A stretch of DNA of 64,000 nt from Flavobacterium psychrophilum (GTDB lineage Bacteria > Bacteroidota > Bacteroidia > Flavobacteriales > Flavobacteriaceae). This document shows, in pieces, positions 8,643 to 64,000 of the stretch. The stretch covers positions 1 through 64,000 of the forward strand of contig CP012388.1 in NCBI GenBank assembly GCA_001708385.1, read 5' to 3'. The notes beneath the pieces are model-generated. The model saw nothing but the letters and a program-made list of their open reading frames with translations. It was not told where the DNA came from and did not search any database. The position numbers and the translations under genes were made by a program. The first letter of the stretch is position 1, and each line of letters begins with the position of its first letter.

Positions 8643-9839
8643 ATGGTACAGCAATACCCTCTGGAATGGCTTGATTCCCTTATCTCAATAACCTTAAATC
8701 TGTCTAAGATGTATATCAGGGATTTGAGCAAAGATGATATACAGAACCTTTCGGATAAAGCGATTATAGAAGCCGTACATATCCAATCCGAATTAAAAAA
8801 CCAAGTATTCTCATTGCATAAAGAGAGCCAGATCCGGCTTTTAGTACAGAAATACCACTCGGCATTTATCATACTGCTTGATACCTTAAGCGACTACGAA
8901 ATCAATCCTGCATTCGCTAAAGAGGAATATGGCAATATTGCCAGTACGCTGATCTCAATACTGGATGAGTTGCTGTTCTTTATAGAAACGCGATTTTCCA
9001 ATTACCTAACCCTCGAGGAGCGTGTCCCACCCACCTACCTGAATGTTTCGCGCAACGAGCTAAAAATGAAACTGGACCGTATCCAGAAAAAGCTAATCGC
9101 TGATGTTGCTGATCCCTCATTCACCTCTATCATACTGGACCATCTCTACCGTTTCATACACAATAAAAAAACGGAAAGTGTTACATTACGCGAGGTATTA
9201 TACCATAAGGAACTTGTACAGAAGCTTGAGCTATTAGGGGCAGGGGATAACCATACGACACTCCACAACGCCCTAAATGAGCTACTGGTATATATGAATT
9301 TCAATAGTAGGGAATATATAAGCTATTTTACGCGTTCCATCGCTGAGAAGATCAATACACTGCAAACAAAAGTGGAACGTGTTGACAGCCTCCATTTCCA
9401 TTATAAGGAGTTTAGCCAGATGCAGAGCCATCAGACCATGATACTGTATCCTCAGCATCAAGACCTTAAGGTTATCCTGGGGAACTGGTTCCAGCAGGAA
9501 ATACTTTATTTGGAAAAGACCATGCACCTGCCTAATAAAAGTATCAGGGACATAAGAAAAACTTCAGCGGCTCCATTAAAGGTAGAGGAGAAGGTCAGGG
9601 TAAACCTATCTTCAGATCAGATAGCCCTTATTCTTAGGGCATTCGACGATTCAAGGCTTTTAGAAGCAAGATCAATGAGCCAGGTCTTTAAAATGATTGT
9701 TCCCTATCTCTCTACACCATCTAAAGAAGAGCTTTCATATGATTCCGTACGCACCAAATCGTATAACGCCGAATCAAAAGATAAAGAAGTGGTCATTTCT
9801 ACCTTAGAAAAAATTATAAAGAGGTTAAACGATTATTAA
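8643..9839 (+). CDS. RteC-like mobile-element protein
   Basis: A 398-residue helical protein without signal peptide. The C-terminal part (VNLSSDQIALILRAFDDSRL, then FKMIVPYLSTPSKEELSYDS) resembles the C-terminus of proteins found with RteC-type regulators in Bacteroidota conjugative elements. The N-terminal part looks like a long helical bundle. RteC controls excision in CTnDOT-like elements; a similar role here is inference. Position between an AraC regulator and mobile-element genes supports it. Confidence 0.5.
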   Translation: MVQQYPLEWLDSLISITLNLSKMYIRDLSKDDIQNLSDKAIIEAVHIQSELKNQVFSLHKESQIRLLVQKYHSAFIILLDTLSDYEINPAFAKEEYGNIASTLISILDELLFFIETRFSNYLTLEERVPPTYLNVSRNELKMKLDRIQKKLIADVADPSFTSIILDHLYRFIHNKKTESVTLREVLYHKELVQKLELLGAGDNHTTLHNALNELLVYMNFNSREYISYFTRSIAEKINTLQTKVERVDSLHFHYKEFSQMQSHQTMILYPQHQDLKVILGNWFQQEILYLEKTMHLPNKSIRDIRKTSAAPLKVEEKVRVNLSSDQIALILRAFDDSRLLEARSMSQVFKMIVPYLSTPSKEELSYDSVRTKSYNAESKDKEVVISTLEKIIKRLNDY

Positions 9840-9883
9840 TTGAAATTTTTTATTTTATTTTTATTGTAGAAAAACCTTACAAA

Positions 9884-10756
9884 ATGAAAAAGATCTTAGC
9901 TATACTTTATCCTTCGGATATACATACATTCCTTAAAGTAGCGTTTTATGTTGCGGTTGCTTTTATACCAATCTATGAATTCCTGCTTACCGGCTTATAC
10001 TGGACAGATGCCAGCTACAAGCTGGGAGTGATATTTTCTAAGCTAGGCTATTCTTATATAGCTGCCTCAATCTTTTACATCCTATCACAGTATATCCCTA
10101 TACTCAGGCCTAAAAGGGAGAGAAAAGAACACATACTTCATCAGGTTTACCTGCAGATCGAAACAATCAATACAATAATAAATAACCTGCAATTTCACCT
10201 TGGGCTTGAAGGGAAAAATATTAAGGATACTTATGTGCTACGAGAAGTATTAGAAGCGATACAGGCAGATTCTGAAGTTAATGGTTTTCCTAACAAAGAA
10301 CTCACCAACAAGGACGAGGAGAAGTATTCAACCTGGGTTCAGTTAGATTTTAAAAATACAGATTCCAAGGGGAATTTCATGACCAACCACTATCATGAGA
10401 ATTACGGCTTTGACCTTGAGGGGGCACTATCGAAACATCCTATTAAGGAACTGAATACGGCCAAATACAAAGATGATCTTATCAGCTCACTTAAAAAAGG
10501 CAACCTGCAATCTGCAACCTTCATAAAAGGCGATAAGGAGGTGAAACAGTTCATAGAAGCCAACCCTCAATTTAAAACCATAACAGTGTATGACGCCAAC
10601 CTAAAAAGGCTGGATACAAGGCAGCGAAATACAGAAACTATGAGCAACAGCGAATCAAAGACACAGAAGAAGTCCCAAAAGGAAAGTGCTGAAGGCGAAG
10701 GAGAGGATGCGGGTACAGCGCAGAAAAATAAACGCGCTAAAAGGCAAGCCTTATGA
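9884..10756 (+). CDS. Membrane protein, mobile-element associated
   Basis: A 290-residue protein with two N-terminal membrane helices (about 20-38 and 48-70), a soluble middle and a very charged, low-complexity tail (SESKTQKKSQKESAEGEGED). Its stop overlaps the start of the next gene (ATGA). No family recognised. The neighbours suggest a role in transfer, mobilisation or maintenance of the element, which is inference. Confidence 0.55.
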   Translation: MKKILAILYPSDIHTFLKVAFYVAVAFIPIYEFLLTGLYWTDASYKLGVIFSKLGYSYIAASIFYILSQYIPILRPKRERKEHILHQVYLQIETINTIINNLQFHLGLEGKNIKDTYVLREVLEAIQADSEVNGFPNKELTNKDEEKYSTWVQLDFKNTDSKGNFMTNHYHENYGFDLEGALSKHPIKELNTAKYKDDLISSLKKGNLQSATFIKGDKEVKQFIEANPQFKTITVYDANLKRLDTRQRNTETMSNSESKTQKKSQKESAEGEGEDAGTAQKNKRAKRQAL

Positions 10757-54038: not shown

Positions 54039-54398
54039 CTAATCCAGCGTTATAAATATATATGATCTTACAGCATCGTTTACATTTTTAGTGCGATGGC
54101 CTTTGCCTGTAGTATCTTCTACCAGTAAAACCTGCCCGGCGTTAAAGGTGCGTTTATCGCCAAGAGATGTTTCAATTTCAATAGCACCGTCCATCAGAAT
54201 TATATACTGCCTGGTGGGTGCATTATGAAAATCGTAATCATAGCCGGCTGTTACTTTCCTGAATATAACCGTACCCGCTTTTTGTGCTTCTGAAAGAAAA
54301 CCGATTTCTCCGTTATCGTTCAGCGGGATATTTAGATCTTTAAAGTGACTGTGTCCGTTAATGTCACTGTAAACCCTGGTTACCGTAAAGCTTTCCAT
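54039..54398 (-). CDS. Small cupin-domain protein
   Basis: A 119-residue protein; I start it at the ATG 54398, which overlaps the stop of the esterase gene (TAATG), instead of the longer frame. It has a single cupin fold: FRKVTAGYDYDFHNAPTRQY, then DGAIEIETSLGDKRTFNAGQ. The metal ligands are incomplete compared with active dioxygenases. Translationally coupled to the esterase gene. Confidence 0.75.
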   Translation of the reverse strand: MESFTVTRVYSDINGHSHFKDLNIPLNDNGEIGFLSEAQKAGTVIFRKVTAGYDYDFHNAPTRQYIILMDGAIEIETSLGDKRTFNAGQVLLVEDTTGKGHRTKNVNDAVRSYIFITLD

Positions 54399-55027
54399 TA
54401 TGCAAAATGATTGGCAAACCATTGAACAGACAATTCAAGGTCTTCTCTTGTAAGATTGTGTCCTGTTGGTAAATTGTGAAAGGCGACATTATAACCAAGT
54501 TCTTTTAAAGTGTCTACGTATTTAGGAGTAGCTGTAGGAGCTATAGTGGGGTCTGCCTTTCCCGAGCTAAAAAATACAGGAACATTATCGGCTTTAACAG
54601 CCGGAATCGTAATCGCTTTAAAAGGTTGCATAGGGCGATATAATACAGCGCCTGCCAAAAATGAAGGGTATTTAACCAATGCAGCACCCGCAATATTGGC
54701 TCCGTTAGAGTATCCCAGGGCAATAACCTTTGTACTGTCGAAACCTTTTTCTACTGCTGCGGCTTTTACAAACGCAACCAGTTCATCGGTTCTAAAATCA
54801 AGATCCTGTTCGTCAAAAACGCCCATGCCTAAACGCTTAAAGAAACGTGGCATACCGTTTTCGCTTACATTACCACGAACACTTAACAGGTTTAGCGTAT
54901 CGCCAAAATTTGCTGCCAGTGGTACCAAATCATTTTCATCACCACCTGTACCGTGAAGCAATAATAGGGTATAAGCACCGGGCTGACCCGATGCTTTGTA
55001 TATATATGTTAATGGCTGAAATTCCAT
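54398..55027 (-). CDS. Carboxylesterase/phospholipase-type hydrolase, MhqD-like
   Basis: A 209-residue alpha/beta hydrolase: LLLHGTGGDENDLVPLA as the oxyanion region, ALGYSNGANIAGAAL with nucleophile Ser, SGKADPTIAPT with the Asp and LPTGHNLTRED with the His. It matches in size and motifs the hydrolase that accompanies a ring-cleaving dioxygenase in Bacillus (MhqD with MhqO). It lies 15 bases after the dioxygenase gene. Likely hydrolyses cleaved aromatic or thioester products. Confidence 0.85.
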   Translation of the reverse strand: MEFQPLTYIYKASGQPGAYTLLLLHGTGGDENDLVPLAANFGDTLNLLSVRGNVSENGMPRFFKRLGMGVFDEQDLDFRTDELVAFVKAAAVEKGFDSTKVIALGYSNGANIAGAALVKYPSFLAGAVLYRPMQPFKAITIPAVKADNVPVFFSSGKADPTIAPTATPKYVDTLKELGYNVAFHNLPTGHNLTREDLELSVQWFANHFA

Positions 55028-55042
55028 AATCTTATTTTTGAA

Positions 55043-55981
55043 TTAATTAATAGGTACTAAATGGGCTTCGATATCTGCACGTCTTGATTCGTATTGCGCA
55101 GGTAGTTTAAGGCCTTTACCAAGATCTTCAAGGGTCTCGTCAATTGTAAAGCCCGGGTTATCGGTAGCAATTTCAAATAATACACCTCCCGGTTCCCTAA
55201 AGTATAGTGAGTGGAAATACTGTCTGTCTATTTGTGGTGTAATGTTGAGGTTTTTCTCAGCTACTTTTTCACGGAAATGCATTAGTATTTCATCATTTAA
55301 AACCCTAAAGGCAACGTGGTGTACTGTACCATTGGCTACATGCCCATGTTTTTCTGCCGGAAGCTCAACTAAGTCTACAATAGAAGCCTGATCGATAGCA
55401 TCGGTAGCATAACGGTAACGGTTACTTTCCTGCCCAACTAATTTGTAACCAAAAATATCGGTAAGTACAGCAGCAGTTCCTGTAATACTGTTAAGTGTAA
55501 GCGTTACATTATGAAAACCTCTTGTTGCATGGGCCGCTTTAACCTCGTCAGTTTCCCAGGGTTTACGGGTGTCTTCGGTATTTTGTTCGATTAACTCTAA
55601 TTTAAGTCCGTCCGGATCAAGGAAGGTTAAATATCTTTCTCCAAATTTTTCTGCCGGTTTGTTGTAAATAACATTGTATTTTTCGAAACGCTCAATCCAG
55701 AATTCAAGGCTTCCTTTAGGTACAGAATAGCCAATCTCTGTTGCCATACCTGTACCTTTGCGCCCTTGTGGGATGCCTTCGCCCCACGGGAAGAAAGTAA
55801 GTATAGTGCCTGCACTACCAATTTCGTCACCAAAGTAGAAGTGATATGTTCCGGGATCGTCAAAGTTTACTGTTTTTTTAATGAAGCGTAAACCTAATAT
55901 GTTAGCGTAAAAGTTGAAGTTGCGTTTAGCATCTCCTGCAATAGCAGTAATATGGTGGATGCCTAAAATTTTATTTTCCAT
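55043..55981 (-). CDS. Ring-cleaving dioxygenase (VOC superfamily), MhqO-like
   Basis: A 312-residue protein with two VOC domains: HHITAIAGDAKRNFNFYANI, then HHVAFRVLNDEIL and FEIATDNPG with the metal-binding His and Glu. Length fits the LinE/MhqO extradiol-type dioxygenases acting on hydroquinones. First gene of the unit that continues with the esterase, cupin, pirin and GNAT genes. Two TACTGTA direct repeats lie in its promoter. Confidence 0.88.
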   Translation of the reverse strand: MENKILGIHHITAIAGDAKRNFNFYANILGLRFIKKTVNFDDPGTYHFYFGDEIGSAGTILTFFPWGEGIPQGRKGTGMATEIGYSVPKGSLEFWIERFEKYNVIYNKPAEKFGERYLTFLDPDGLKLELIEQNTEDTRKPWETDEVKAAHATRGFHNVTLTLNSITGTAAVLTDIFGYKLVGQESNRYRYATDAIDQASIVDLVELPAEKHGHVANGTVHHVAFRVLNDEILMHFREKVAEKNLNITPQIDRQYFHSLYFREPGGVLFEIATDNPGFTIDETLEDLGKGLKLPAQYESRRADIEAHLVPIN

Positions 55982-56307: not shown

Positions 56308-56523
56308 ATGAAAATCACGTTTTTAAGAAGCACGCTTATGGCTGCTGTACTTGTTGGAGGTCTTAGCCTTACATCATGTAAAGACAAAGAAACAGAAACT
56401 ACAACAGAAACAGAAACTACAGTAGATGCTGATTCTACAGTAACTACAACTGAAACTGAAGTAGATGCACCAGGTACTGCTAACGATACTACAGTAACTG
56501 ATACTACTAAGACAGCAAACTAA
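56308..56523 (+). CDS. Thr/Glu-rich small lipoprotein 1
   Basis: A 71-residue lipoprotein, MKITFLRSTLMAAVLVGGLS then LTSCKDKE (Cys24). The mature part is almost only Thr, Glu, Asp and Val, like an unstructured linker, and probably sits on the envelope without an enzymatic role. A closely related copy follows at 56589. Confidence 0.7.
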   Translation: MKITFLRSTLMAAVLVGGLSLTSCKDKETETTTETETTVDADSTVTTTETEVDAPGTANDTTVTDTTKTAN

Positions 56524-56527
56524 TGAT

Positions 56528-56553
56528 TAAGGCAGCTTTAAGCTGCCTTTTTT
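56528..56553 (+). terminator. Terminator between the two lipoproteins
   Basis: AAGGCAGC and GCTGCCTT form an 8-bp stem with a short loop and a T run, 5 bases after the first lipoprotein stop. The second copy therefore has its own promoter or is reached by read-through. Confidence 0.85.
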
Positions 56554-56588
56554 TATGCAATAAAGTTAAACACTTAAAACAGTATATT

Positions 56589-56813
56589 ATGAAAGTTACA
56601 TTTTTAAAGAGCATACTTATGGTTGCTGTGCTTACGGGCGCATTAAGCCTTACATCTTGCAAAAAAGAAACCACCGAAACAACAACTACTACTGAAGTTG
56701 ACGCAACTACAGCTGAAGATACTTTAACTACAACAGATGTTGAGGTAGATGAAAATGGTGCTAAAGACACTATCTCGGTAACTACCGATACAGTTTTGGT
56801 TAAAAAACCGTAA
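56589..56813 (+). CDS. Thr/Glu-rich small lipoprotein 2
   Basis: I start it at the ATG 56589 (MKVTFLKSILMVAVLTGALS, then LTSCKKE), which aligns with the first copy; the longer frame starts inside the terminator. It has 74 residues and a Thr/Glu/Asp-rich mature part ending TVLVKKP. It is a tandem duplicate of the gene before it. Function unknown. Confidence 0.7.
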   Translation: MKVTFLKSILMVAVLTGALSLTSCKKETTETTTTTEVDATTAEDTLTTTDVEVDENGAKDTISVTTDTVLVKKP

Positions 56814-56931: not shown

Positions 56932-57831
56932 TTAACTTCTAAATGATGATGGTGTAGCATTGGTGAACTTCTTAAAGAAGTGGTTAAAATGCGCAGACTC
57001 GTCAAAACCTAACGCATAGCTTATTTCAGAGATATTCCAGTCGGTATGCTTAAGTAGTGCTTTTGCTTCGCTTAACAGCCGTTCGAATATATGATCTGAT
57101 GTTGTTTTACCCGTGGTAAGCTTAATAGCACGGTTAAGGTGGTTAACATGCACATTAAGTTGTCCGGCAAAATCTTTTGCGCTTCGTAGTGAAAACTGCT
57201 GAGACGGCGATTCTATAGGGAATTGTCTTTCTAACAACTCTGTAAATACAGATGTAATTCGTGTATTGGCATCTACGTGAGCATATAGTGTTTCACTTGG
57301 GCGCATTTTTATCGCATAATGTACCATCTCCATAATATAATTGCGTATCAGGTCGAACTTAAACTGGTAGTCGCCCTTCATTTCATCAATCATTTTAGTA
57401 AATACATTAGTGACATATTCGTCATTTTCAACATCCAGTACGTAGGCCGGACTTGCTCCAGGCATATACATAGGCAGGTCTTTCAGGCTGCCTCGCATGT
57501 GCTCACTGAAAAAAGCATCTTTAAAAATACAGAAAAAGCCTGTTGTATCGGGAGTAATAGCTTCAAAAGTGTAAGGTACAGTAGGATTAAAAAACAACAG
57601 GGTAGTGCCGTTTACTTCAAAACTCTTATCTGCGTAATGATATATATAGTGACCGCGTATCAGGGCAATCTTATAATAGTCCCTTCGGGTATATTTTACA
57701 GGTTCTTTTCCCGGACCCATACAGTCTTCATGCCTGAAAACATTAAAGTGACCAAGGTCTTTTTGCAGGCCCTCGGGCATCCAGTTAAATTTCTGCTTGT
57801 ATAAATCTTCAAGTGTTTCTGTCTTTGCCAT
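56932..57831 (-). CDS. AraC-family transcriptional regulator
   Basis: A 299-residue regulator with an N-terminal cupin-like sensor domain (YHYADKSFEVNGTTLLFFNP, VPYTFEAITPDTTGFFCIFK) and a C-terminal AraC DNA-binding domain (AKDFAGQLNVHVNHLNRAIK, ALLKHTDWNISEISYALGFD, HFNHFFKKFTNATPSSFRS). Its own promoter and four nearby promoters share the same spaced motif, so it probably controls this local set and itself. The inducer is unknown. Confidence 0.9.
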   Translation of the reverse strand: MAKTETLEDLYKQKFNWMPEGLQKDLGHFNVFRHEDCMGPGKEPVKYTRRDYYKIALIRGHYIYHYADKSFEVNGTTLLFFNPTVPYTFEAITPDTTGFFCIFKDAFFSEHMRGSLKDLPMYMPGASPAYVLDVENDEYVTNVFTKMIDEMKGDYQFKFDLIRNYIMEMVHYAIKMRPSETLYAHVDANTRITSVFTELLERQFPIESPSQQFSLRSAKDFAGQLNVHVNHLNRAIKLTTGKTTSDHIFERLLSEAKALLKHTDWNISEISYALGFDESAHFNHFFKKFTNATPSSFRS

Positions 57832-57875: not shown

Positions 57876-57944
57876 CAAAAGTAGTTTGATACCAACTATA
57901 AAGTTATGTAAAAAGAAAAGTAAAAATTGTAAAATTCAAACAAT
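57876..57944 (-). promoter_or_regulatory. Regulon promoter 1, upstream of araC gene
   Basis: On the minus strand ATTGTTTGA (57944-57936), CAAT (57929-57926), CTTTT (57920-57916), ACATAA (57909-57904) and the -7 element TACTTTTG (57883-57876) occur at the same spacing as in four other promoters. The araC start lies 45 bases downstream, so the regulator may control its own expression. Confidence 0.65.
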
Positions 57945-57968
57945 TTTAGTCGTTATAGCCCGATTTCT

Positions 57969-58036
57969 ATTGTTTGAAAATCACAATCAATAGTTTGATG
58001 CGGGTAATACCAAGTGTTTGTATAGCTATACCTTTG
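57969..58036 (+). promoter_or_regulatory. Regulon promoter 2, upstream of truncated sensor
   Basis: ATTGTTTGA (57969-57977), CAAT (57984-57987), AGTTTGA (57992-57998), GTAATA (58004-58009) and the -7 element TACCTTTG (58029-58036). GTTTGA recurs 21 bp apart (57972 and 57993), typical of half-site spacing for AraC proteins. It is back to back with promoter 1. Confidence 0.65.
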
Positions 58037-58071
58037 TAGTGTATGTTGGTTGTATTCTAAATCAATGAAGT

Positions 58072-58140
58072 ATGAAAAATCCGAAAGCTAAAAGAGATAA
58101 CGCTAAAGCGTATACAGTAGAGGTTGTATATTATGTATAA
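58072..58140 (+). CDS. Possible 22-residue leader ORF
   Basis: ATG at 58072 opens MKNPKAKRDNAKAYTVEVVY then YV and a stop that overlaps the next start. It begins 36 bases after the -7 box, the same distance as the first codon in the other members of the regulon, which suggests it is the first translated ORF of this transcript. Could be a leader or a remnant of an older start. Confidence 0.35.
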   Translation: MKNPKAKRDNAKAYTVEVVYYV

Positions 58141-58555
58141 CCTTCACTACCATATCTACCAACTTCCTCAGCCTGAAATTCATAAGAAAGGCTGGTATAC
58201 ATTCTGCCTTTTCAGTTCGGGTAACACAACCTCATTTTTATTACTGGATTCGTCTTCTGCACAAATGCCAAACGGACTTGATAACGGCCTGGTGTTTTCT
58301 ATACAGGAAGATCAGTTGCCAAAACAGGTAAAAGACAATATAAAAAAATATCCGCTTTTTTATCAGAAAGGGTATGGCCCTTTTACATTAGGTACTTTAC
58401 AGCAGTGCGATATTTCATCATTGTTCGATAAGATTACAAACCTTATTACTACCACATATATATATAAAGATTATCTGTTGGCAAATTTTGCGTTACAGCT
58501 TCTTCATTTTGGCATTAAACATTTTGCGGACGATAAGGCAACTCAAAGCATATAG
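58133..58555 (+). CDS. Truncated AraC sensor domain without DNA-binding part
   Basis: A 140-residue protein starting at the ATG 58133. It resembles the sensor half of AraC regulators such as the one at 56932: FTLGTLQQCDISSLFDKITN and YIYKDYLLANFALQLLHFGI match the linker region that normally leads to the DNA-binding domain, but the gene stops there with no helix-turn-helix. It may be a remnant, or an accessory that binds the same ligand. It lies next to the intact AraC gene in divergent orientation. Confidence 0.6.
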   Translation: MYNLHYHIYQLPQPEIHKKGWYTFCLFSSGNTTSFLLLDSSSAQMPNGLDNGLVFSIQEDQLPKQVKDNIKKYPLFYQKGYGPFTLGTLQQCDISSLFDKITNLITTTYIYKDYLLANFALQLLHFGIKHFADDKATQSI

Positions 58556-58666
58556 CGAGTAGTTTTTTGTCGTAAATGTATTACTCTTAAACCTTAAAAG
58601 GGGGTATTTCTTTAGAGCTGTTTACAAAAGGTTATATATTTGTGAAAATCATCAATACCCTTTTGT

Positions 58667-61600
58667 ATGCGTAAAAACCTGTTTTATATCGTTCTGCTTG
58701 CTGTAAGCAGTGTGTATGCCCAACCCAACTCGGCACCGAAATGGCTTCGTAATTCGGCTATTTCTCCAGACGGTTCCCAGATAGCTTTTTCCTATCAGGG
58801 AGATATTTTTAAAGTACCAATAAGTGGAGGCGACGCAGTACGCCTAACTATCCATGAGTCATATGATGCCGATCCCGTTTGGAGTAACGACGGGAAGCAA
58901 CTAGCATTTTCGTCTATGCGTTACGGCAATAAAGATGTGTTTGTTATACCTTCTGTCGGAGGTGTTGCCAAAAGGCTTACCTACCATTCGACAGATGATA
59001 TTCCAACGGATTTTTCACCATCGGGTGATAAGGTCATCTTCTCGTCATCACGTCTTGATGATGTGGCTTCGTCGGTATTTCCAACGGCTGTATTATCTGA
59101 ACTATATGAAATAAATATAGCTGGAGGACAGGAAAAGAGAATTATATCTACACCGGCTGAAATGGCTACCTATAGCCCGGACGGTACATGGCTGTTTTTT
59201 CATGACAAAAAAGGATACGAAGATCCGTGGAGAAAACACCATACATCATCGGTAACCCGAGACCTTTGGTTATACAATACTAAAGATAAACAATATTATC
59301 CTGTAACTGATAGTACCGTTGAAGAGCGCAATCCTGTATTTGGCTACAATGGATCATATTTCTTTCTAAGCGAAAGAAATGGCACTTTCAATGTATGGAA
59401 AGCGAACCTAGCAAATAACAAAGAAAGCAATGCACAGCAGGTAACCAACTTTACAAAACACCCTGTTCGTTTTTTAAGCCGATCTAATAATGGTGTGCTT
59501 TGCTATACCTGGGATGGAGAAATATATACTCAGACTGATGGTGGCCAGCCTCAGAAGGTTGCTATAACATTGCAAAGTGACGAAAGGTATAACGAAAAAG
59601 TAATGCAGCCAATACGTGAGGATGCCAGCGAATTTTCGGTATCGCCAAACGGTAAAGAGGTAGCATTTGTAGTACACGGAGAAGTATTTGTAACATCGGT
59701 AGAATTTGGCCAGACCAAACGAATTAGCAATACGCCAGATCAGGAGCGTGATGTGCAGTTTAGCCCTGACGGAAGAAAATTACTCTATTCGGGAGAGCGT
59801 GGCGGATGCTGGAATATTTATGAAACGATTCTTGTAAACAAAGACGAGAAATACTTTTTTGATGCTTCACAGCTAAAAGAAACTGCAGTTGTAAGTTCGG
59901 GTAAAGAGTCATTCCAGGCACAATATTCGCCGGACGGCAAAGAGATCGCTTTTCTTGAAGAGCGTACTACTGTAAGGATATTAAACAGGGCTTCCGGTGA
60001 TGTAAGAACAGTTTTGGCCGGAAAATATAATTATTCGTATAGTGATGGCGACCAGTATTACACATGGTCTCCCGATAGTAAATGGCTTTTGGTGCCTTAC
60101 TTCGGTTATGAACGTTGGAATACTGATATTGGGCTTTTGAATGTTAATGATGGCGAACTTCCTATAAACCTTAGCGAAAGTGGGTATAATAATCAACAGC
60201 CAAAATTCGGGATGGATGGCGAAATGGTTTATTGGGCATCGGATAAAGAAGGGTATCGTTCGCACGGTAGCTGGGGATCTGAAAGTGATGTGTATGCAAT
60301 ATTCTTAACCGAGGCTGCGCACAAAAAATTCCAGCTTAGTAAGGCCGAATATGCTTTGTGGAAAGAACAGGAAGACGCTAAAAAAGACGATAAAGATAAA
60401 CAATCGGATAAAAAAGAGAAGAATAGCGACAAAAAGGACAAGAAAGACGATGAGAAAGCTGAGCCTGTCAAAATTCTAAAAATAGACTTTGAAGGTCTTC
60501 AGGATCGTAAAGAGAAACTTACTATACATTCATCAAGGTTGTCTGACTTTGTGGTTGATAAAGATGCCGAAAACATTTATTACCTTACCCGTTTTGAAGA
60601 AGGCACCAACCTGTGGCGTACCAAATTCAGGGAAAAAGAGACTAAGCTTTTTGTTAGCCTTAACAGCGAAGATTCAAAAATTGCACTGGATAAAAAAGAA
60701 GAGAATCTTTTCCTTATTGATAAAACGGGAAAATTGCTAAAGATTACGCTGAAGGACGCTAAGAAAGAAACGGTTAATTTCTCCAGCGAAATGAACCTGA
60801 ACGAAACTGCCGAACGTAACTATATGTTTGAGCACGCCTGGAGGCAGTTTAAAAAGAAATTCTATCTTGAAGATATTCATGGCACCGATTGGGATTTCTA
60901 CAAAAAGGAATATGCTAAGTTTCTGCCATACATTAATAACTCTATAGATTTTGCCGACCTGCTTGGTGAAATGCTTGGTGAAGCGAATGCGTCGCATACA
61001 GGAGGCCGTTATCGTCCGGAACCCAACAAGACAAATGATGCTACTGCTTCTTTAGGTATTTATATTGACAATACATATGATGGCGATGGTATAAGAATTG
61101 CTGAGGTTATGGATAAGAGTCCGCTGCTTAAGGCAAAGCAGAAAATAAAAGCAGGATATATTATCGAAGCTATTGAAGATGTTGAGATAACATCCGAACA
61201 AAACTATTATGCGTTGCTGAACAGGAGAGCCGATAAAAAGACACTAATCTCGGTATTCGATCCTAAAGCTGGTAAACGCTGGAATGAAGTTATTGAACCT
61301 ATAACGCTTACGAAAGAAAACCGACTTGCTTATGAGCGTTGGGTTAAGAACAGGGAAAAAGATGTTGAGAAAATGTCGGGTGGACGTTTAGGCTATGTCC
61401 ACGTTACAGGAATGGATTCGCAGAGTTTCCGTCAGGTGTTTGAAAAAGCATTAGGTAAGTACAACGACCGTGAAGCACTAATAGTAGATACACGATTTAA
61501 CGGTGGGGGATGGCTGCATGATGATCTTGCGACATTCTTAAGTGGTAAGCCATATATGAGCTTTGAACCGAGAGGGCAGAAGATGGGATCTGAACCATTG

Positions 61601-61933
61601 TTTAAATGGCAGAAGCCTTCGGCAGTGCTTATAAGCGAGGGTAATTACTCTGATGCGCATATGTTCCCTTATACCTACAAAGCACTTGATATTGGCAAAC
61701 TAATAGGTATGCCGGTACCGGGAACGGGTACTGCTGTATGGTGGGAAAAAATGATCGATGGCAAAACTATTTTTGGTATTCCGCAAATAGGTATGCGTAC
61801 CGTAAAAGAAGGGAAGCTAATGGAAAACTTTCAGTTGGAACCGGATGTAAAAGTTAAGAATGAGCCGGGTAAAACTAATAGTGGAGAAGACCAACAGTTG
61901 CGAAAAGCAGTAGATGAACTTCTTAAGAAATAA
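58667..61933 (+). CDS. Tricorn protease-like S41 peptidase
   Basis: A 1088-residue exported protein with signal peptide (FYIVLLAVSSVYAQ). The first 680 residues form TolB/DPP-like beta-propellers (for example SPDGSQIAFSYQGDIFKVPI), then a PDZ-like region (SPLLKAKQKIKAGYIIEAIE) and a C-terminal S41 core (LIVDTRFNGGGWLHDDLATF, VLISEGNYSDAHMFP with the nucleophile Ser). A very charged Lys/Asp/Glu linker lies near 570-600. It degrades peptides in the periplasm. It has no clear regulon motif upstream. Confidence 0.93.
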   Translation: MRKNLFYIVLLAVSSVYAQPNSAPKWLRNSAISPDGSQIAFSYQGDIFKVPISGGDAVRLTIHESYDADPVWSNDGKQLAFSSMRYGNKDVFVIPSVGGVAKRLTYHSTDDIPTDFSPSGDKVIFSSSRLDDVASSVFPTAVLSELYEINIAGGQEKRIISTPAEMATYSPDGTWLFFHDKKGYEDPWRKHHTSSVTRDLWLYNTKDKQYYPVTDSTVEERNPVFGYNGSYFFLSERNGTFNVWKANLANNKESNAQQVTNFTKHPVRFLSRSNNGVLCYTWDGEIYTQTDGGQPQKVAITLQSDERYNEKVMQPIREDASEFSVSPNGKEVAFVVHGEVFVTSVEFGQTKRISNTPDQERDVQFSPDGRKLLYSGERGGCWNIYETILVNKDEKYFFDASQLKETAVVSSGKESFQAQYSPDGKEIAFLEERTTVRILNRASGDVRTVLAGKYNYSYSDGDQYYTWSPDSKWLLVPYFGYERWNTDIGLLNVNDGELPINLSESGYNNQQPKFGMDGEMVYWASDKEGYRSHGSWGSESDVYAIFLTEAAHKKFQLSKAEYALWKEQEDAKKDDKDKQSDKKEKNSDKKDKKDDEKAEPVKILKIDFEGLQDRKEKLTIHSSRLSDFVVDKDAENIYYLTRFEEGTNLWRTKFREKETKLFVSLNSEDSKIALDKKEENLFLIDKTGKLLKITLKDAKKETVNFSSEMNLNETAERNYMFEHAWRQFKKKFYLEDIHGTDWDFYKKEYAKFLPYINNSIDFADLLGEMLGEANASHTGGRYRPEPNKTNDATASLGIYIDNTYDGDGIRIAEVMDKSPLLKAKQKIKAGYIIEAIEDVEITSEQNYYALLNRRADKKTLISVFDPKAGKRWNEVIEPITLTKENRLAYERWVKNREKDVEKMSGGRLGYVHVTGMDSQSFRQVFEKALGKYNDREALIVDTRFNGGGWLHDDLATFLSGKPYMSFEPRGQKMGSEPLFKWQKPSAVLISEGNYSDAHMFPYTYKALDIGKLIGMPVPGTGTAVWWEKMIDGKTIFGIPQIGMRTVKEGKLMENFQLEPDVKVKNEPGKTNSGEDQQLRKAVDELLKK

Positions 61934-61950
61934 ATAATTTACATGTAATG

Positions 61951-61980
61951 AACAGCCGCCTAATAGCGGCTGTTTTGCTT
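61951..61980 (+). terminator. Terminator after tricorn protease
   Basis: AACAGCCGC and GCGGCTGTT form a 9-bp stem followed by a T-rich tract, 18 bases after the stop. Confidence 0.85.
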
Positions 61981-62047
61981 TTGTTTGAATTTTGTAAGCA
62001 ATGCTTTGTTTTTTACAATAAGAGGCTATTGTTTCATAGTAATTTTG
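61980..62047 (+). promoter_or_regulatory. Regulon promoter 3, upstream of SnoaL-like gene
   Basis: TTTGTTTGA (61980-61988), CAATGCTTTG (61999-62008), ACAATAA (62015-62021) and the -7 element TAATTTTG (62040-62047). The gene starts 38 bases downstream. Same spacing as promoters 1, 2, 4 and 5. Confidence 0.65.
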
Positions 62048-62084
62048 TATACTGATAATTAACCGTCAAACCAATCTAAGGACT

Positions 62085-62513
62085 ATGAGAAACGAAAAAA
62101 ATGCTGCTGTTATACAGGGATTGTATATTGCTGTTAACGAAAGGAACTTTGAATACCTTAATACTGTTAGCGATGCCAGAAGCGAATGGTTTGATATTCC
62201 TTTTAATATTACAAATTTGGGAATAACATCGGCGGCGGCCTCGTGGGAGAAAAGGTTCAGTCTTTTTCCCGATGTTACTTTCGAAATACAAAATCTTATG
62301 GCGTATCATAATTATGTAATAGTACAGGGAGTAGAAAGGGCAACGTTTAAAGGTATGCTGGCTTTTATTGATGAAGATATTATTACCGAAGGTTATCCTG
62401 TGGAGATCGCTTTTTGTGATATATACTACCTTGAAGATGGCAGGATATTAAAAGCTAATTCTAACTTCGATGTAAATGCTTTTAAAGAGCAGATTTGTGC
62501 GATACCTGTATAG
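62085..62513 (+). CDS. SnoaL/NTF2-like protein
   Basis: A 142-residue protein with the SnoaL/ester cyclase-type pattern: a long N-terminal helix (VIQGLYIAVNERNFEYLNTV), then FPDVTFEIQNLMAYHNYVIV and EIAFCDIYYLEDGRILKAN. Such small cone-shaped proteins bind hydrophobic ligands or act as cyclases or isomerases. Regulon promoter 3 drives it. Substrate unknown. Confidence 0.8.
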   Translation: MRNEKNAAVIQGLYIAVNERNFEYLNTVSDARSEWFDIPFNITNLGITSAAASWEKRFSLFPDVTFEIQNLMAYHNYVIVQGVERATFKGMLAFIDEDIITEGYPVEIAFCDIYYLEDGRILKANSNFDVNAFKEQICAIPV

Positions 62514-62540
62514 CCATAATTTTATTGGATAGAATATCAG

Positions 62541-62562
62541 CCGCTTAATAAGCGGTTTTTTT
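62541..62562 (+). terminator. Terminator after SnoaL-like gene
   Basis: CCGCTT, a 4-base loop and AAGCGG followed by a T run, 27 bases after the stop. Confidence 0.85.
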
Positions 62563-62606
62563 GTTTTATAATTTAAATCTGTTTGTTTTTACACTCATTT
62601 TAATTG

Positions 62607-62675
62607 ATTGTTTGATTTGAGCAATTATTGCTTTGTATGCCGCAATAAGTTGACTTTAAAGCCTCTATATCTTTG
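62607..62675 (+). promoter_or_regulatory. Regulon promoter 4, upstream of SDR gene
   Basis: ATTGTTTGA (62607-62615), GCAATTATTGCTTTG (62621-62635), GCAATAA (62642-62648) and the -7 element TATCTTTG (62668-62675). The SDR gene starts 40 bases downstream. The TTTG cores are 21 bp apart. Confidence 0.7.
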
Positions 62676-62714
62676 TGTTATCAAATAATAACAATTAATT
62701 TAATAGAATAAGAA

Positions 62715-63563
62715 ATGAAAAATTCAAATCAAAAAGTATGGTTTGTAACAGGTGCATCAAAAGGACTAGGCCTGTCACTTGTTAAACGATTATTAAACGA
62801 AGGCCATAACGTAACAGCTACTTCAAGGAGTCTTTCTGACCTGGAGAGTGCTGTAGGAAGCCATATTAATTTTTTACCGCTTGCAGTAGATATTCTAAAT
62901 GAAGAAAGCGTTGCTGATGCGGTTGATAAAACCATAAACCATTTCGGTAGTCTGGATGTTGTAGTAAACAATGCAGGTTATGGATTGTTAGGTGCATTAG
63001 AAGAACTTACCGATGCAGAAAGCAGGCAGAATTTTGATGTTAATGTATTCGGATCGCTTAACGTTATACGTCATGCATTACCACAATTAAGAAAACAGCA
63101 ATCAGGGCATATTTTCAATATAGCATCAATTGGTGGATTTACAGGTGATTTCCCCGGCTTTGGAATTTACTGCGCTACTAAATTTGCAGTCCATGGCTTT
63201 ACAGAATCGCTTGCTGCTGAGGTTGCGCCATTTGGCATCCATGCTACAGTAGTTTCTCCCGGTTACTTTAGGACTAACTTTTTAGAAGGCAGTTCTTTGG
63301 CAACACCTAAAAATGCTATTGAAGACTATAAATCGGTTAGGGACTCGCAATTGGCTCATGAAAACGACATTAACAATAATCAACCCGGCGACCCCGATAA
63401 GGCAGCAGCCGTGCTAATTGAAGTTGCTTCTATGGCACAGCCGCCGGTTCAGTTATTCCTTGGGCCAGATGCTTATCACCTGGCTGAGGTAAAAATGCAG
63501 TCGGTACAAAAAGAACTTGAGGCGTTAAGGCATATAGCCGCAGCCACAAATTTTGATAACTAA
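62715..63563 (+). CDS. Short-chain dehydrogenase/reductase
   Basis: A 282-residue classical SDR oxidoreductase: FVTGASKGLGLSLVKRLLNE with the NAD(P)-binding Gly motif, NNAGYG, and the active-site YCATKFAVHG (Tyr and Lys) after IASIGGFTGDF. Ser, Tyr and Lys are present, so it should be active. It would reduce or oxidise a carbonyl compound; substrate unknown. Regulon promoter 4 lies upstream and the ABM gene follows. Confidence 0.9.
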   Translation: MKNSNQKVWFVTGASKGLGLSLVKRLLNEGHNVTATSRSLSDLESAVGSHINFLPLAVDILNEESVADAVDKTINHFGSLDVVVNNAGYGLLGALEELTDAESRQNFDVNVFGSLNVIRHALPQLRKQQSGHIFNIASIGGFTGDFPGFGIYCATKFAVHGFTESLAAEVAPFGIHATVVSPGYFRTNFLEGSSLATPKNAIEDYKSVRDSQLAHENDINNNQPGDPDKAAAVLIEVASMAQPPVQLFLGPDAYHLAEVKMQSVQKELEALRHIAAATNFDN

Positions 63564-63572
63564 TACACTCAC

Positions 63573-63610
63573 GAACGGCTCCAAAATAAGGAGCCGTTCT
63601 TTATTTTTCT
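63573..63610 (+). terminator. Terminator after SDR gene
   Basis: GAACGGCTCC and GGAGCCGTTC form a perfect 10-bp stem with a 7-base loop followed by TTTATTTTT. Confidence 0.9.
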
Positions 63611-63614
63611 TTAA

Positions 63615-63683
63615 AATGTTTGAATAGTATAAACAATGCTGTGAATCTTGCAATAACAACTTTGTAATCGTGAAGTAACTTTG
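63615..63683 (+). promoter_or_regulatory. Regulon promoter 5, upstream of ABM gene
   Basis: AATGTTTGA (63615-63623), CAATGCTGTG (63634-63643), GCAATAA (63650-63656) and the -7 element TAACTTTG (63676-63683). The ABM gene starts 35 bases downstream. Same spacing as the four other members. Confidence 0.65.
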
Positions 63684-63717: not shown

Positions 63718-64000
63718 ATGGAAAATTCAACGCTTATTACTGCAAAAACTTTACTTGTAAATTTTACAGCAAGAGACAGTCAGTCTTCGACAGAGCTTCA
63801 ATATGCACTTAATTATCTGGCTGACATCACTAGAAACGAGGAAGGTTTTATACGATATGAGGTGTTCCGCTCAGACAATAACCATCTAGATTATTATGTA
63901 TTGCAAACCTGGTCTGGAGAGCGTGCTTTGGAAAGGCATCTTAACCAGATACATGTATTAGAATTTGCTGCTCAATGCAAGCTTTGGCTTGCAAGGCCAT
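63718..64000 (+). CDS. ABM-type monooxygenase, partial
   Basis: Starts at the ATG 63718 and runs off the window end; 94 complete codons are visible. The pattern LLVNFTARDSQSSTELQYAL, NEEGFIRYEVFRSDNNHLDY and ERHLNQIHVLEFA matches the antibiotic biosynthesis monooxygenase fold, small ferredoxin-like proteins acting on quinones or aromatics or of unknown role. Regulon promoter 5 lies upstream. The C-terminus is not seen. Confidence 0.8.
   Translation, partial: MENSTLITAKTLLVNFTARDSQSSTELQYALNYLADITRNEEGFIRYEVFRSDNNHLDYYVLQTWSGERALERHLNQIHVLEFAAQCKLWLARP

What the first reader, a model, noticed from the sequence alone, without database searches (positions are those of the whole stretch)
57876..63683. 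Five promoters share one spaced motif: a local AraC regulon
Aligned on ATTGTTTGA as position 1, five intergenic regions show the same arrangement: WTGTTTGA at 1-9, a CAAT followed by TTTG-like core near 20-29, RCAATAA-like at 36-42, and the -7 box TAnnTTTG at 61-69. They sit upstream of the AraC gene (minus strand), the truncated sensor, the SnoaL-like gene, the SDR gene and the ABM gene. Two TTTG cores lie 21 bp apart in at least three of them, as expected for AraC half-sites. Spacing varies by only one base. The gene set looks like a small oxidoreductase response controlled by the adjacent AraC protein.
Basis: partly seen in the sequence, partly recalled or inferred. Interest (0 to 1): 0.82.

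Follow-up and report, generated by a model that had tools for sequence, protein, structure and literature searches.

The report
AraC switch controlling six oxidoreductase-cluster promoters
Five neighbouring promoters, plus one elsewhere in this Flavobacterium-like chromosome, carry the same double landing site for a gene switch of the AraC type, which probably turns on enzymes that neutralise reactive chemicals and also a DNA-binding-less relative of itself that may act as a brake.

Summary
All five promoters carry two direct repeats of one half-site with a 21-bp period, and a -7 box (TAnnTTTG) 59 or 60 bp from the site's start. Each held-out site ranks directly behind the four training sites among 149,920 positions. 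A profile built only from other genomes' sites finds six in the 4.14-Mb genome: these five and an unlinked one before a paralogous SDR gene; the next hit is E 0.03. The site follows this AraC subfamily in Bacteroidota: 63 of 77 distant loci, 121 of 133 homologues in 150 congeneric genomes. The AraC regulon is thus supported, with corrections: at least six promoters, not purely local, AraC's own site the weakest. The 'truncated sensor' is no pseudogene but a conserved HTH-less relative of the AraC sensor domain; similar ORFs lie near AraC in 11 further loci. It is plausibly a feedback brake. Genes behind the site elsewhere are mostly SDRs and AraC, with aldo-keto reductases and aldehyde-reductase-like dehydrogenases, suggesting a carbonyl or electrophile response. 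Binding, activation, inducer and brake are inferred.

The parts
56932..57831 (-). AraC-family regulator, 299 aa (HTH_18 at residues 222-298; sensing domain N-terminal)
   Evidence: Pfam HTH_18 65.3 bits; homologues in 80 named loci, the listing's maximum, and 133 in the genus sample
57903..57943 (-). operator of the AraC gene (two 21-bp-period direct repeats; downstream half degenerate)
   Evidence: R2 E 1.2e-4, weakest of the six
57876..57883 (-). -7 box TACTTTTG of the AraC promoter, offset 60
57970..58010 (+). operator of the HTH-less sensor gene; divergent from the AraC operator, starts 27 bp apart
   Evidence: R2 E 4.6e-9
58029..58036 (+). -7 box TACCTTTG, offset 59
58133..58555 (+).
   Evidence: 19 short homologues; profile match to AraC residues 49-176, probability 97.9, E 3.7e-13; pN below pS in all six species pairs; no Pfam match
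61981..62021 (+). operator of the SnoaL-like gene
   Evidence: R2 E 4.6e-9
62040..62047 (+). -7 box TAATTTTG, offset 59
62085..62513 (+). SnoaL-like protein, 142 aa
   Evidence: Pfam SnoaL 36.3 bits
62608..62648 (+). operator of the SDR gene
   Evidence: R2 E 1.1e-10
62668..62675 (+). -7 box TATCTTTG, offset 60
62715..63563 (+). short-chain dehydrogenase/reductase, 282 aa
   Evidence: Pfam adh_short 160.9 bits; best NCBIfam PRK06180 oxidoreductase 292.3 bits, just under its cutoff of 298
63616..63656 (+). operator of the ABM gene
   Evidence: R2 E 1.2e-7
63676..63683 (+). -7 box TAACTTTG, offset 60
63718..64000 (+). ABM-domain protein (120 aa, ends at genome base 64080, beyond the window); an Atu4866-domain gene follows at genome bases 64140-64502
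   Evidence: ORFs; Pfam ABM 41.2 bits, Atu4866 129.1 bits
61950..61975 (+). terminator-like hairpin before the SnoaL operator
   Evidence: 6 found in the region, shuffles mean 4.8, so weak alone
62539..62557 (+). terminator-like hairpin before the SDR operator
   Evidence: same caveat
63573..63599 (+). terminator-like hairpin before the ABM operator
   Evidence: same caveat

Best explanation
The five elements are operators of the AraC-family protein encoded at 56932-57831, at promoters read by the primary sigma factor. A dimer binds two direct repeats one 21-bp period apart. The repeats cover about -72 to -32, so the downstream half occupies the place of the missing -33 element, and the bound protein most likely activates by contacting RNA polymerase (a class-II-like layout; term recalled). 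The regulon holds at least six promoters: AraC itself (weakly), an HTH-less sensor protein, SnoaL, SDR, ABM with probably Atu4866 behind it, and an unlinked second SDR at 3,247,546-3,248,376. The targets are oxidoreductases and small enzymes, most likely a response to a reactive carbonyl or electrophile. The HTH-less protein keeps the part of the sensor domain that I take, by analogy, to hold the dimer helices; it probably pairs with AraC and damps it (feedback). SHOWN by sequence: the sites, their exclusivity, the conserved link to this AraC subfamily, the conserved HTH-less gene. INFERRED: binding, activation, inducer, heterodimer.
For: Leave-one-out ranks. Genome-wide exclusivity with R1 and with R2, built without any window site. 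Distant loci: 63 of 77 with a site over 18 bits, against a mean of 0.53 (maximum 5) for 40 column-permuted matrices. Genus: 97 of 105 sites at E<=1e-6 outside the own genome lie within 3 kb of an AraC homologue (8 of the 97 are R2 training sites, by the coordinates); 121 of 133 homologues have a listed site; of the 89 sampled genomes without a homologue, 1 has a site at E<=1e-4. Lag-21 repeat. The -7 box was not part of the search matrix, yet lies at 59/60 exactly in 34 of 47 sites and within one mismatch in 47 of 47; at seven other offset pairs no more than 1 of 47 has it within one mismatch. TTG at the expected -33 spacing in 1 of 35 sites. The sixth site precedes the SDR paralogue; in relatives G145, G133 and G126 that SDR's counterpart (57-67% identical) lies in one cluster with the first SDR and AraC, with a single listed site. 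HTH-less protein.
Against: No binding, expression or ligand data. R2's training sites were found with the window's own matrix, so R2 is not fully independent. The AraC gene's own site is weak downstream (E 1.2e-4). A second AraC homologue (43%) exists at 3,187,295 and could in principle share sites, although R2 lists none beside it. 12 of 133 genus homologues have no listed R2 site within 3 kb. At looser thresholds specificity falls: 7 of 89 genomes without a homologue have an R2 match at E<=1e-3 (two of them, G007 and G061, from the genome table only), and only 13 of 32 foreign R1 hits at E<=0.01 lie within 1 kb of a homologue. 16 of 130 downstream ORFs match neither the reference genes nor the aldo-keto-reductase words. 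Activation rather than repression rests on geometry alone. The HTH-less ORF was found in 15 of 102 sequences scanned, and only five of those 15 have a site of their own.
Confidence: 0.85

Rival explanations
1. The shared pattern is a general feature of primary-sigma promoters in this genome (-7 box plus A/T-rich upstream words), not an operator.
For: All five have TAnnTTTG, the usual sigma-A box in a flavobacterium (passage of PMC9723704); ATTGTTTGA alone occurs 98 times.
Against: The full pattern occurs six times in 4.14 Mb and tracks one AraC subfamily across genomes.
Confidence: 0.02
2. The sites belong to another regulator (for example the 43% AraC paralogue at 3,187,295), or are shared between paralogues.
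For: Paralogues in relatives sit beside sites caught by the same profile R2.
Against: In this genome the paralogue sits beside its own SDR with a diverged site that R2 does not report. The five sites flank the window's AraC and keep this arrangement in three named species whose AraC is 90-93% identical.
Confidence: 0.08
3. The AraC protein represses rather than activates these promoters.
For: The downstream half-site lies where a -33 element would lie, so binding could block polymerase.
Against: A TTG at -33 spacing is nearly absent (1 of 35), so the promoters look dependent on an activator; tandem direct repeats next to the core promoter are an AraC/XylS activator layout (XylS repeats in passages of PMC5481539; E. 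coli AraC recalled).
Confidence: 0.12
4. The 'truncated sensor' is a decaying duplicate of AraC with no function.
For: It lacks the HTH and the counterpart of about the first 48 residues of AraC.
Against: 19 homologues of 93-140 aa; pN 0.19-0.40 against pS 0.74-0.86 between four species, synonymous sites being saturated; own operator kept in all four; 19 short proteins fall on one side of a branch away from 58 full-length AraC proteins (support 91, few columns, long branches).
Confidence: 0.06
5. The HTH-less protein is not an antagonist but a ligand-binding or chaperone partner that raises AraC activity, or an independent small-molecule binder.
For: Sequence does not decide direction; the Flavobacterium form matches most of the AraC sensor region (residues 49-176).
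Against: In the 11 other loci (8 of the 11 ORFs are 106-116 aa) the proteins align only with the end of the sensor region, which fits pairing better than ligand binding. TrlR and CerN, the analogues whose passages I read, are antagonists.
Confidence: 0.35

Closest known systems
XylS/Pm and AraC I1-I2 activator sites
   Same: Two direct repeats with a 21-bp period (XylS: two 15-bp repeats; passage of PMC5481539, which gives a 6-bp separation), next to the core promoter; HTH_18/HTH_AraC DNA-binding domain.
   Different: Bacteroidota sigma factor with -7 TAnnTTTG; different half-site; no known inducer. The 21-bp reading of XylS and the E. coli AraC I1-I2 layout are recalled, not looked up.
YqhC - yqhD - yqhE/dkgA aldehyde response of E. 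coli
   Same: AraC-family activator controlling aldehyde reductase and aldo-keto reductase genes beside it (passages of PMC5297802); genes behind this motif in relatives include SDRs, aldo-keto reductases and Ahr-like dehydrogenases.
   Different: Orthology was not tested; this regulator's sensing domain only brushes Pfam AraC_binding (20.4 bits, cutoff 21.1); its inducer is unknown; it has an HTH-less relative in the regulon and an SDR core.
TrlR/TraR and CerN/CerM (LuxR family)
   Same: A version of the regulator without its DNA-binding domain that antagonises the full-length one (passages of PMC6341043 and PMC11655674).
   Different: LuxR, not AraC family; here the short gene carries the regulator's own operator and antagonism is untested.
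ANR family (Aar-AggR)
   Same: Small protein that acts on an AraC-family activator and impairs its DNA binding; Aar is named AggR-activated regulator (passages of PMC10148876).
   Different: No evidence of homology (not compared); here the small protein is a relative of the AraC sensor domain itself.

Membership tests
AraC/XylS-type activator with tandem operator | C-terminal double-HTH domain | tested here: met
   HTH_18 65.3 bits, cutoff 33.6; AraC-family DNA-binding domains of solved structures matched in this part only
AraC/XylS-type activator with tandem operator | N-terminal sensing/dimerisation domain | tested here: inconclusive
   AraC_binding 20.4 bits, cutoff 21.1; structure prediction switched off
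AraC/XylS-type activator with tandem operator | direct repeats about two helical turns apart | tested here: met
   lag 21 autocorrelation 0.68, other lags 4-29 <=0.20
AraC/XylS-type activator with tandem operator | downstream repeat at the -35/-33 region of the promoter | tested here: met
   -7 box at 59/60 within one mismatch in 47 of 47 sites; the box spans -12 to -5 (passage of PMC9723704); start sites themselves not mapped
AraC/XylS-type activator with tandem operator | ligand-dependent activation | not testable with these tools
   needs expression work
YqhC aldehyde-response system | AraC-family regulator beside aldehyde/aldo-keto reductase genes | tested here: inconclusive
   SDRs here; AKR and Ahr-like ADH behind sites in relatives; substrates unknown
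YqhC aldehyde-response system | orthology to YqhC | not tested
   no YqhC sequence was compared
TrlR/CerN-like HTH-less antagonist | shares the partner's sensor/dimer domain, lacks its DNA-binding domain | tested here: met
   hhalign probability 97.9 to AraC 49-176; no HTH family matched in its 140 aa
TrlR/CerN-like HTH-less antagonist | LuxR family | tested here: not met
   relative of an AraC-type protein; no Pfam match
TrlR/CerN-like HTH-less antagonist | blocks the full-length regulator | not testable with these tools
   needs co-expression or pull-down
ANR family | homology to Aar/Rnr | tested here: inconclusive
   no Pfam or NCBIfam match of any kind; ANR sequences not compared

The most novel reading that the evidence does not exclude
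A Bacteroidota-wide AraC/carbonyl-reductase module encodes its own dedicated brake: an HTH-less relative of the AraC sensor domain, under the same operator in Flavobacterium or near AraC elsewhere, that forms inactive heterodimers with the activator, as TrlR does in the LuxR family. My listings showed no such case in the AraC family.
Probability: 0.4. Interest if true: 0.7.

Novelty: new variant of a known kind. Interest (0 to 1): 0.52.

Why it matters
It gives an apparently uncharacterised regulator subfamily, common in the genus (61 of 150 sampled genomes), a defined operator and a testable target list, and shows how what is a one-site cluster in relatives became a six-promoter regulon in one lineage. 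If the HTH-less relative is a brake, it would be a conserved AraC-family example of a design known from LuxR proteins. The operator-promoter pair could also serve as a small inducible system for Bacteroidota once the inducer is known.

Tried and rejected
General-promoter reading: rejected by whole-genome scans. Pseudogene reading of 58133-58555: rejected. That the quinone-type operon 54039-55981 (MhqD-like esterase, VOC protein) belongs to the regulon: no site there. That the S41 protease at 58667 belongs: no site at its promoter, and it was not found in the AG291 locus. Own-genome R1 hits at 500138, 1464782 and 3674693 lie in or beside unrelated genes and were read as chance; the other weak hits were not examined. 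Near plasmid relatives of the divergent promoter region: none in the PLSDB collection. PDB sequence match for the HTH-less family: none up to E 10. Literature: nine searches were answered; three aimed at an AraC-SDR regulon in this phylum (25: no paper; 35: 3 listed; 66: 4 listed) and none of the listed titles and abstract starts described one. One search listed 20 of 77 papers, mostly off topic; one search listed 5, on ANR proteins, HilE and others. Of the six papers opened (PMC6341043, PMC10148876, PMC11655674, PMC9723704, PMC5481539, PMC5297802) I saw passages only.

Rows dropped: L155, L158 and L168 were left out of the HTH-less set (L155 and L168 are pieces of the AraC gene itself; L158 11551-11865 was not examined). 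The listed starts of two HTH-less ORFs (L093, L107) overlap the end of the AraC gene, so their true starts are unsure. In one search, 96 sites were reduced to 47 non-redundant ones, leaving out L089-L091. In one search only 35 of 47 sites entered the -33 test, whereas the shuffle mean (4.2) was over 47. One search did not list all matches: 66 genomes match, 150 rows in 64 genomes were listed and used.
Full report
OBSERVATION. The window lies at bases 1-64000 of a single-contig 4.14-Mb genome, nearest by AraC, among named records, to Flavobacterium sp. NRK1, sp. AG291 and F. cerinum (90-93% identity). Each is a 41-base site followed by TAnnTTTG at offset 59 or 60. With each site held out in turn, a matrix from the other four ranks it 5th of 149,920 positions, behind only the four training sites; with all five, the sixth-best position scores 9.3 bits against 40.2-49.5.

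ANATOMY. The site is one half-site repeated with a 21-bp period. Over 47 non-redundant sites from other loci the column autocorrelation is 0.68 at lag 21 and at most 0.20 at every other lag from 4 to 29; the consensus is ATTGTTTGAATTTtaCAAnTATtgGTTTGAat...gCAA. The -7 box, which was not part of the search matrix, is at 59/60 exactly in 34 of 47 and within one mismatch in 47 of 47; at seven other offset pairs none is exact and at most 1 of 47 is within one mismatch. Since the flavobacterial box spans -12 to -5 (passage of PMC9723704), the repeats cover about -72 to -32. A TTG at -33 spacing is present in 1 of 35 usable sites (the -33 rule is recalled). This is the layout of an activator that stands in for the upstream promoter element; direction of regulation is inferred.

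WHOLE-GENOME TEST. Profile R1 (five sites) gives five hits of 46.7-55.2 bits and then 17.1 bits. That sixth hit proved meaningful: it lies about 16 bp upstream of a second SDR gene (3,247,546-3,248,376, 52% identical). Profile R2, built from 47 sites of other genomes, finds six: the five and the SDR2 site (E 7e-10, second best); the seventh is E 0.028. R2's training sites had been found with the window matrix, so this is a check on specificity more than an independent discovery.

CONSERVATION. In 77 loci around more distant AraC homologues (L092-L168, 1.49 Mb), 63 have a site over 18 bits against a mean of 0.53 and a maximum of 5 for 40 column-permuted matrices; over 20 bits, 57 against 0. In 40 relatives the 9 foreign R1 hits at E<=5e-4 all lie within 350 bp of an AraC homologue; at E<=0.01 it is 13 of 32 within 1 kb. 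In 150 congeneric genomes, 97 of 105 listed R2 sites at E<=1e-6 outside the own genome lie within 3 kb of one of 133 AraC homologues (8 of the 97 are training sites of R2), 121 of the 133 homologues have a listed site, and of 89 genomes without a homologue 1 has a site at E<=1e-4 and 7 at E<=1e-3. In NRK1, AG291 and F. cerinum the sites precede AraC, the HTH-less gene, SnoaL and SDR, and also ABM in NRK1 and the Atu4866-type gene in F. cerinum, but not the S41 protease that lies between in NRK1 and F. cerinum.

EVOLUTION. In relatives G145 and G133 the order is AraC, site, SDR2, SDR, and in G126 site, SDR, SDR2, AraC, each with a single listed site at the cluster. So a one-site cluster appears to have been broken up and extended to six promoters (inference). 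By the sensor region the window's AraC and its three near relatives group nearest to Chitinophagaceae proteins in a tree of 103 columns, so transfer is possible but weakly supported.

THE HTH-LESS PROTEIN. It has 19 homologues of 93-140 aa (the search admits only proteins of similar length). Its profile matches AraC residues 49-176 (probability 97.9, E 3.7e-13). Between four species pN is 0.19-0.40 and pS 0.74-0.86. The best-conserved stretch of those compared is residues 108-131 (0.91), which I take for the second helix of the dimer part; no structure could be made. Similar HTH-less ORFs lie within about 1 kb of AraC in 11 further loci, of several Bacteroidota families, out of 102 sequences scanned; 8 of the 11 are 106-116 aa. 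One of them (L115) has its own site. The 19 short rows in the tree fall on one side of a branch (support 91) away from 58 full-length proteins, with long branches and few columns. A dimer-forming brake is the best guess by analogy with TrlR and CerN (passages); for the AraC family, searches listed nothing like it, but did list the ANR proteins (passages) and HilE (listing only).

FUNCTION. Of 130 downstream ORFs behind sites over 14 bits (136 sites, 6 without an ORF; not made non-redundant), 70 are SDR relatives, 27 AraC relatives (one of them the L115 HTH-less ORF), 8 aldo-keto-reductase-like, 9 relatives of the window's other regulon genes, and 16 unmatched. Of the 10 foreign R2 sites at E<=1e-5 that are not within 3 kb of an AraC homologue, four precede SDRs, two aldo-keto-reductase-like and two zinc-ADH-like genes, one an unrelated protein, and one runs off its contig. 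The one zinc ADH scanned is best matched by aldehyde reductase Ahr (305.5 bits, below its cutoff of 470), and the AKRs scanned are two from other loci; the rest are named by likeness. This resembles the YqhC aldehyde response of E. coli (passages) in logic; the inducer is unknown, and neither orthology nor substrates were tested.

VERDICT. As an AraC regulon it is an ordinary kind of system; the conserved, co-regulated HTH-less relative makes it a variant worth testing.

Noticed in passing
window 54039-55981 (-): Operon of a glyoxalase/dioxygenase-superfamily (VOC) protein, an MhqD-like carboxylesterase (159.7 bits, cutoff 325) and a small protein that looks cupin-like but has no Pfam match: resembles a quinone-degradation set, has no operator of this regulon.
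   Followed up: partly
G000:C1:3187295-3188170 (L087 about 9280-10203): Second AraC homologue (43%) directly followed by its own SDR, with a diverged version of the site that R2 does not report.
   Followed up: partly
L089 about 9789-9803 (NRK1, - strand): The -7 box of the HTH-less gene ends four bases before its ATG, which would make the mRNA leaderless.
   Followed up: no
window 58072-58140 (+): A 22-codon ORF overlaps the start of the HTH-less gene by 8 bases; AG291 shows no equivalent by eye.
   Followed up: no
   Followed up: partly
L222, L224: The same site precedes aldo-keto-reductase-like genes, more than 3 kb from any AraC homologue found.
   Followed up: partly
window 58667-61933 (+): 1088-aa tricorn-like S41 protease with a beta-propeller part, lying between the regulon genes without a site; not found in the AG291 locus.
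   Followed up: no
window 56308-56813 (+): Two tandem small lipoprotein-like ORFs downstream of AraC; the first has counterparts near AraC in the near species.
   Followed up: no
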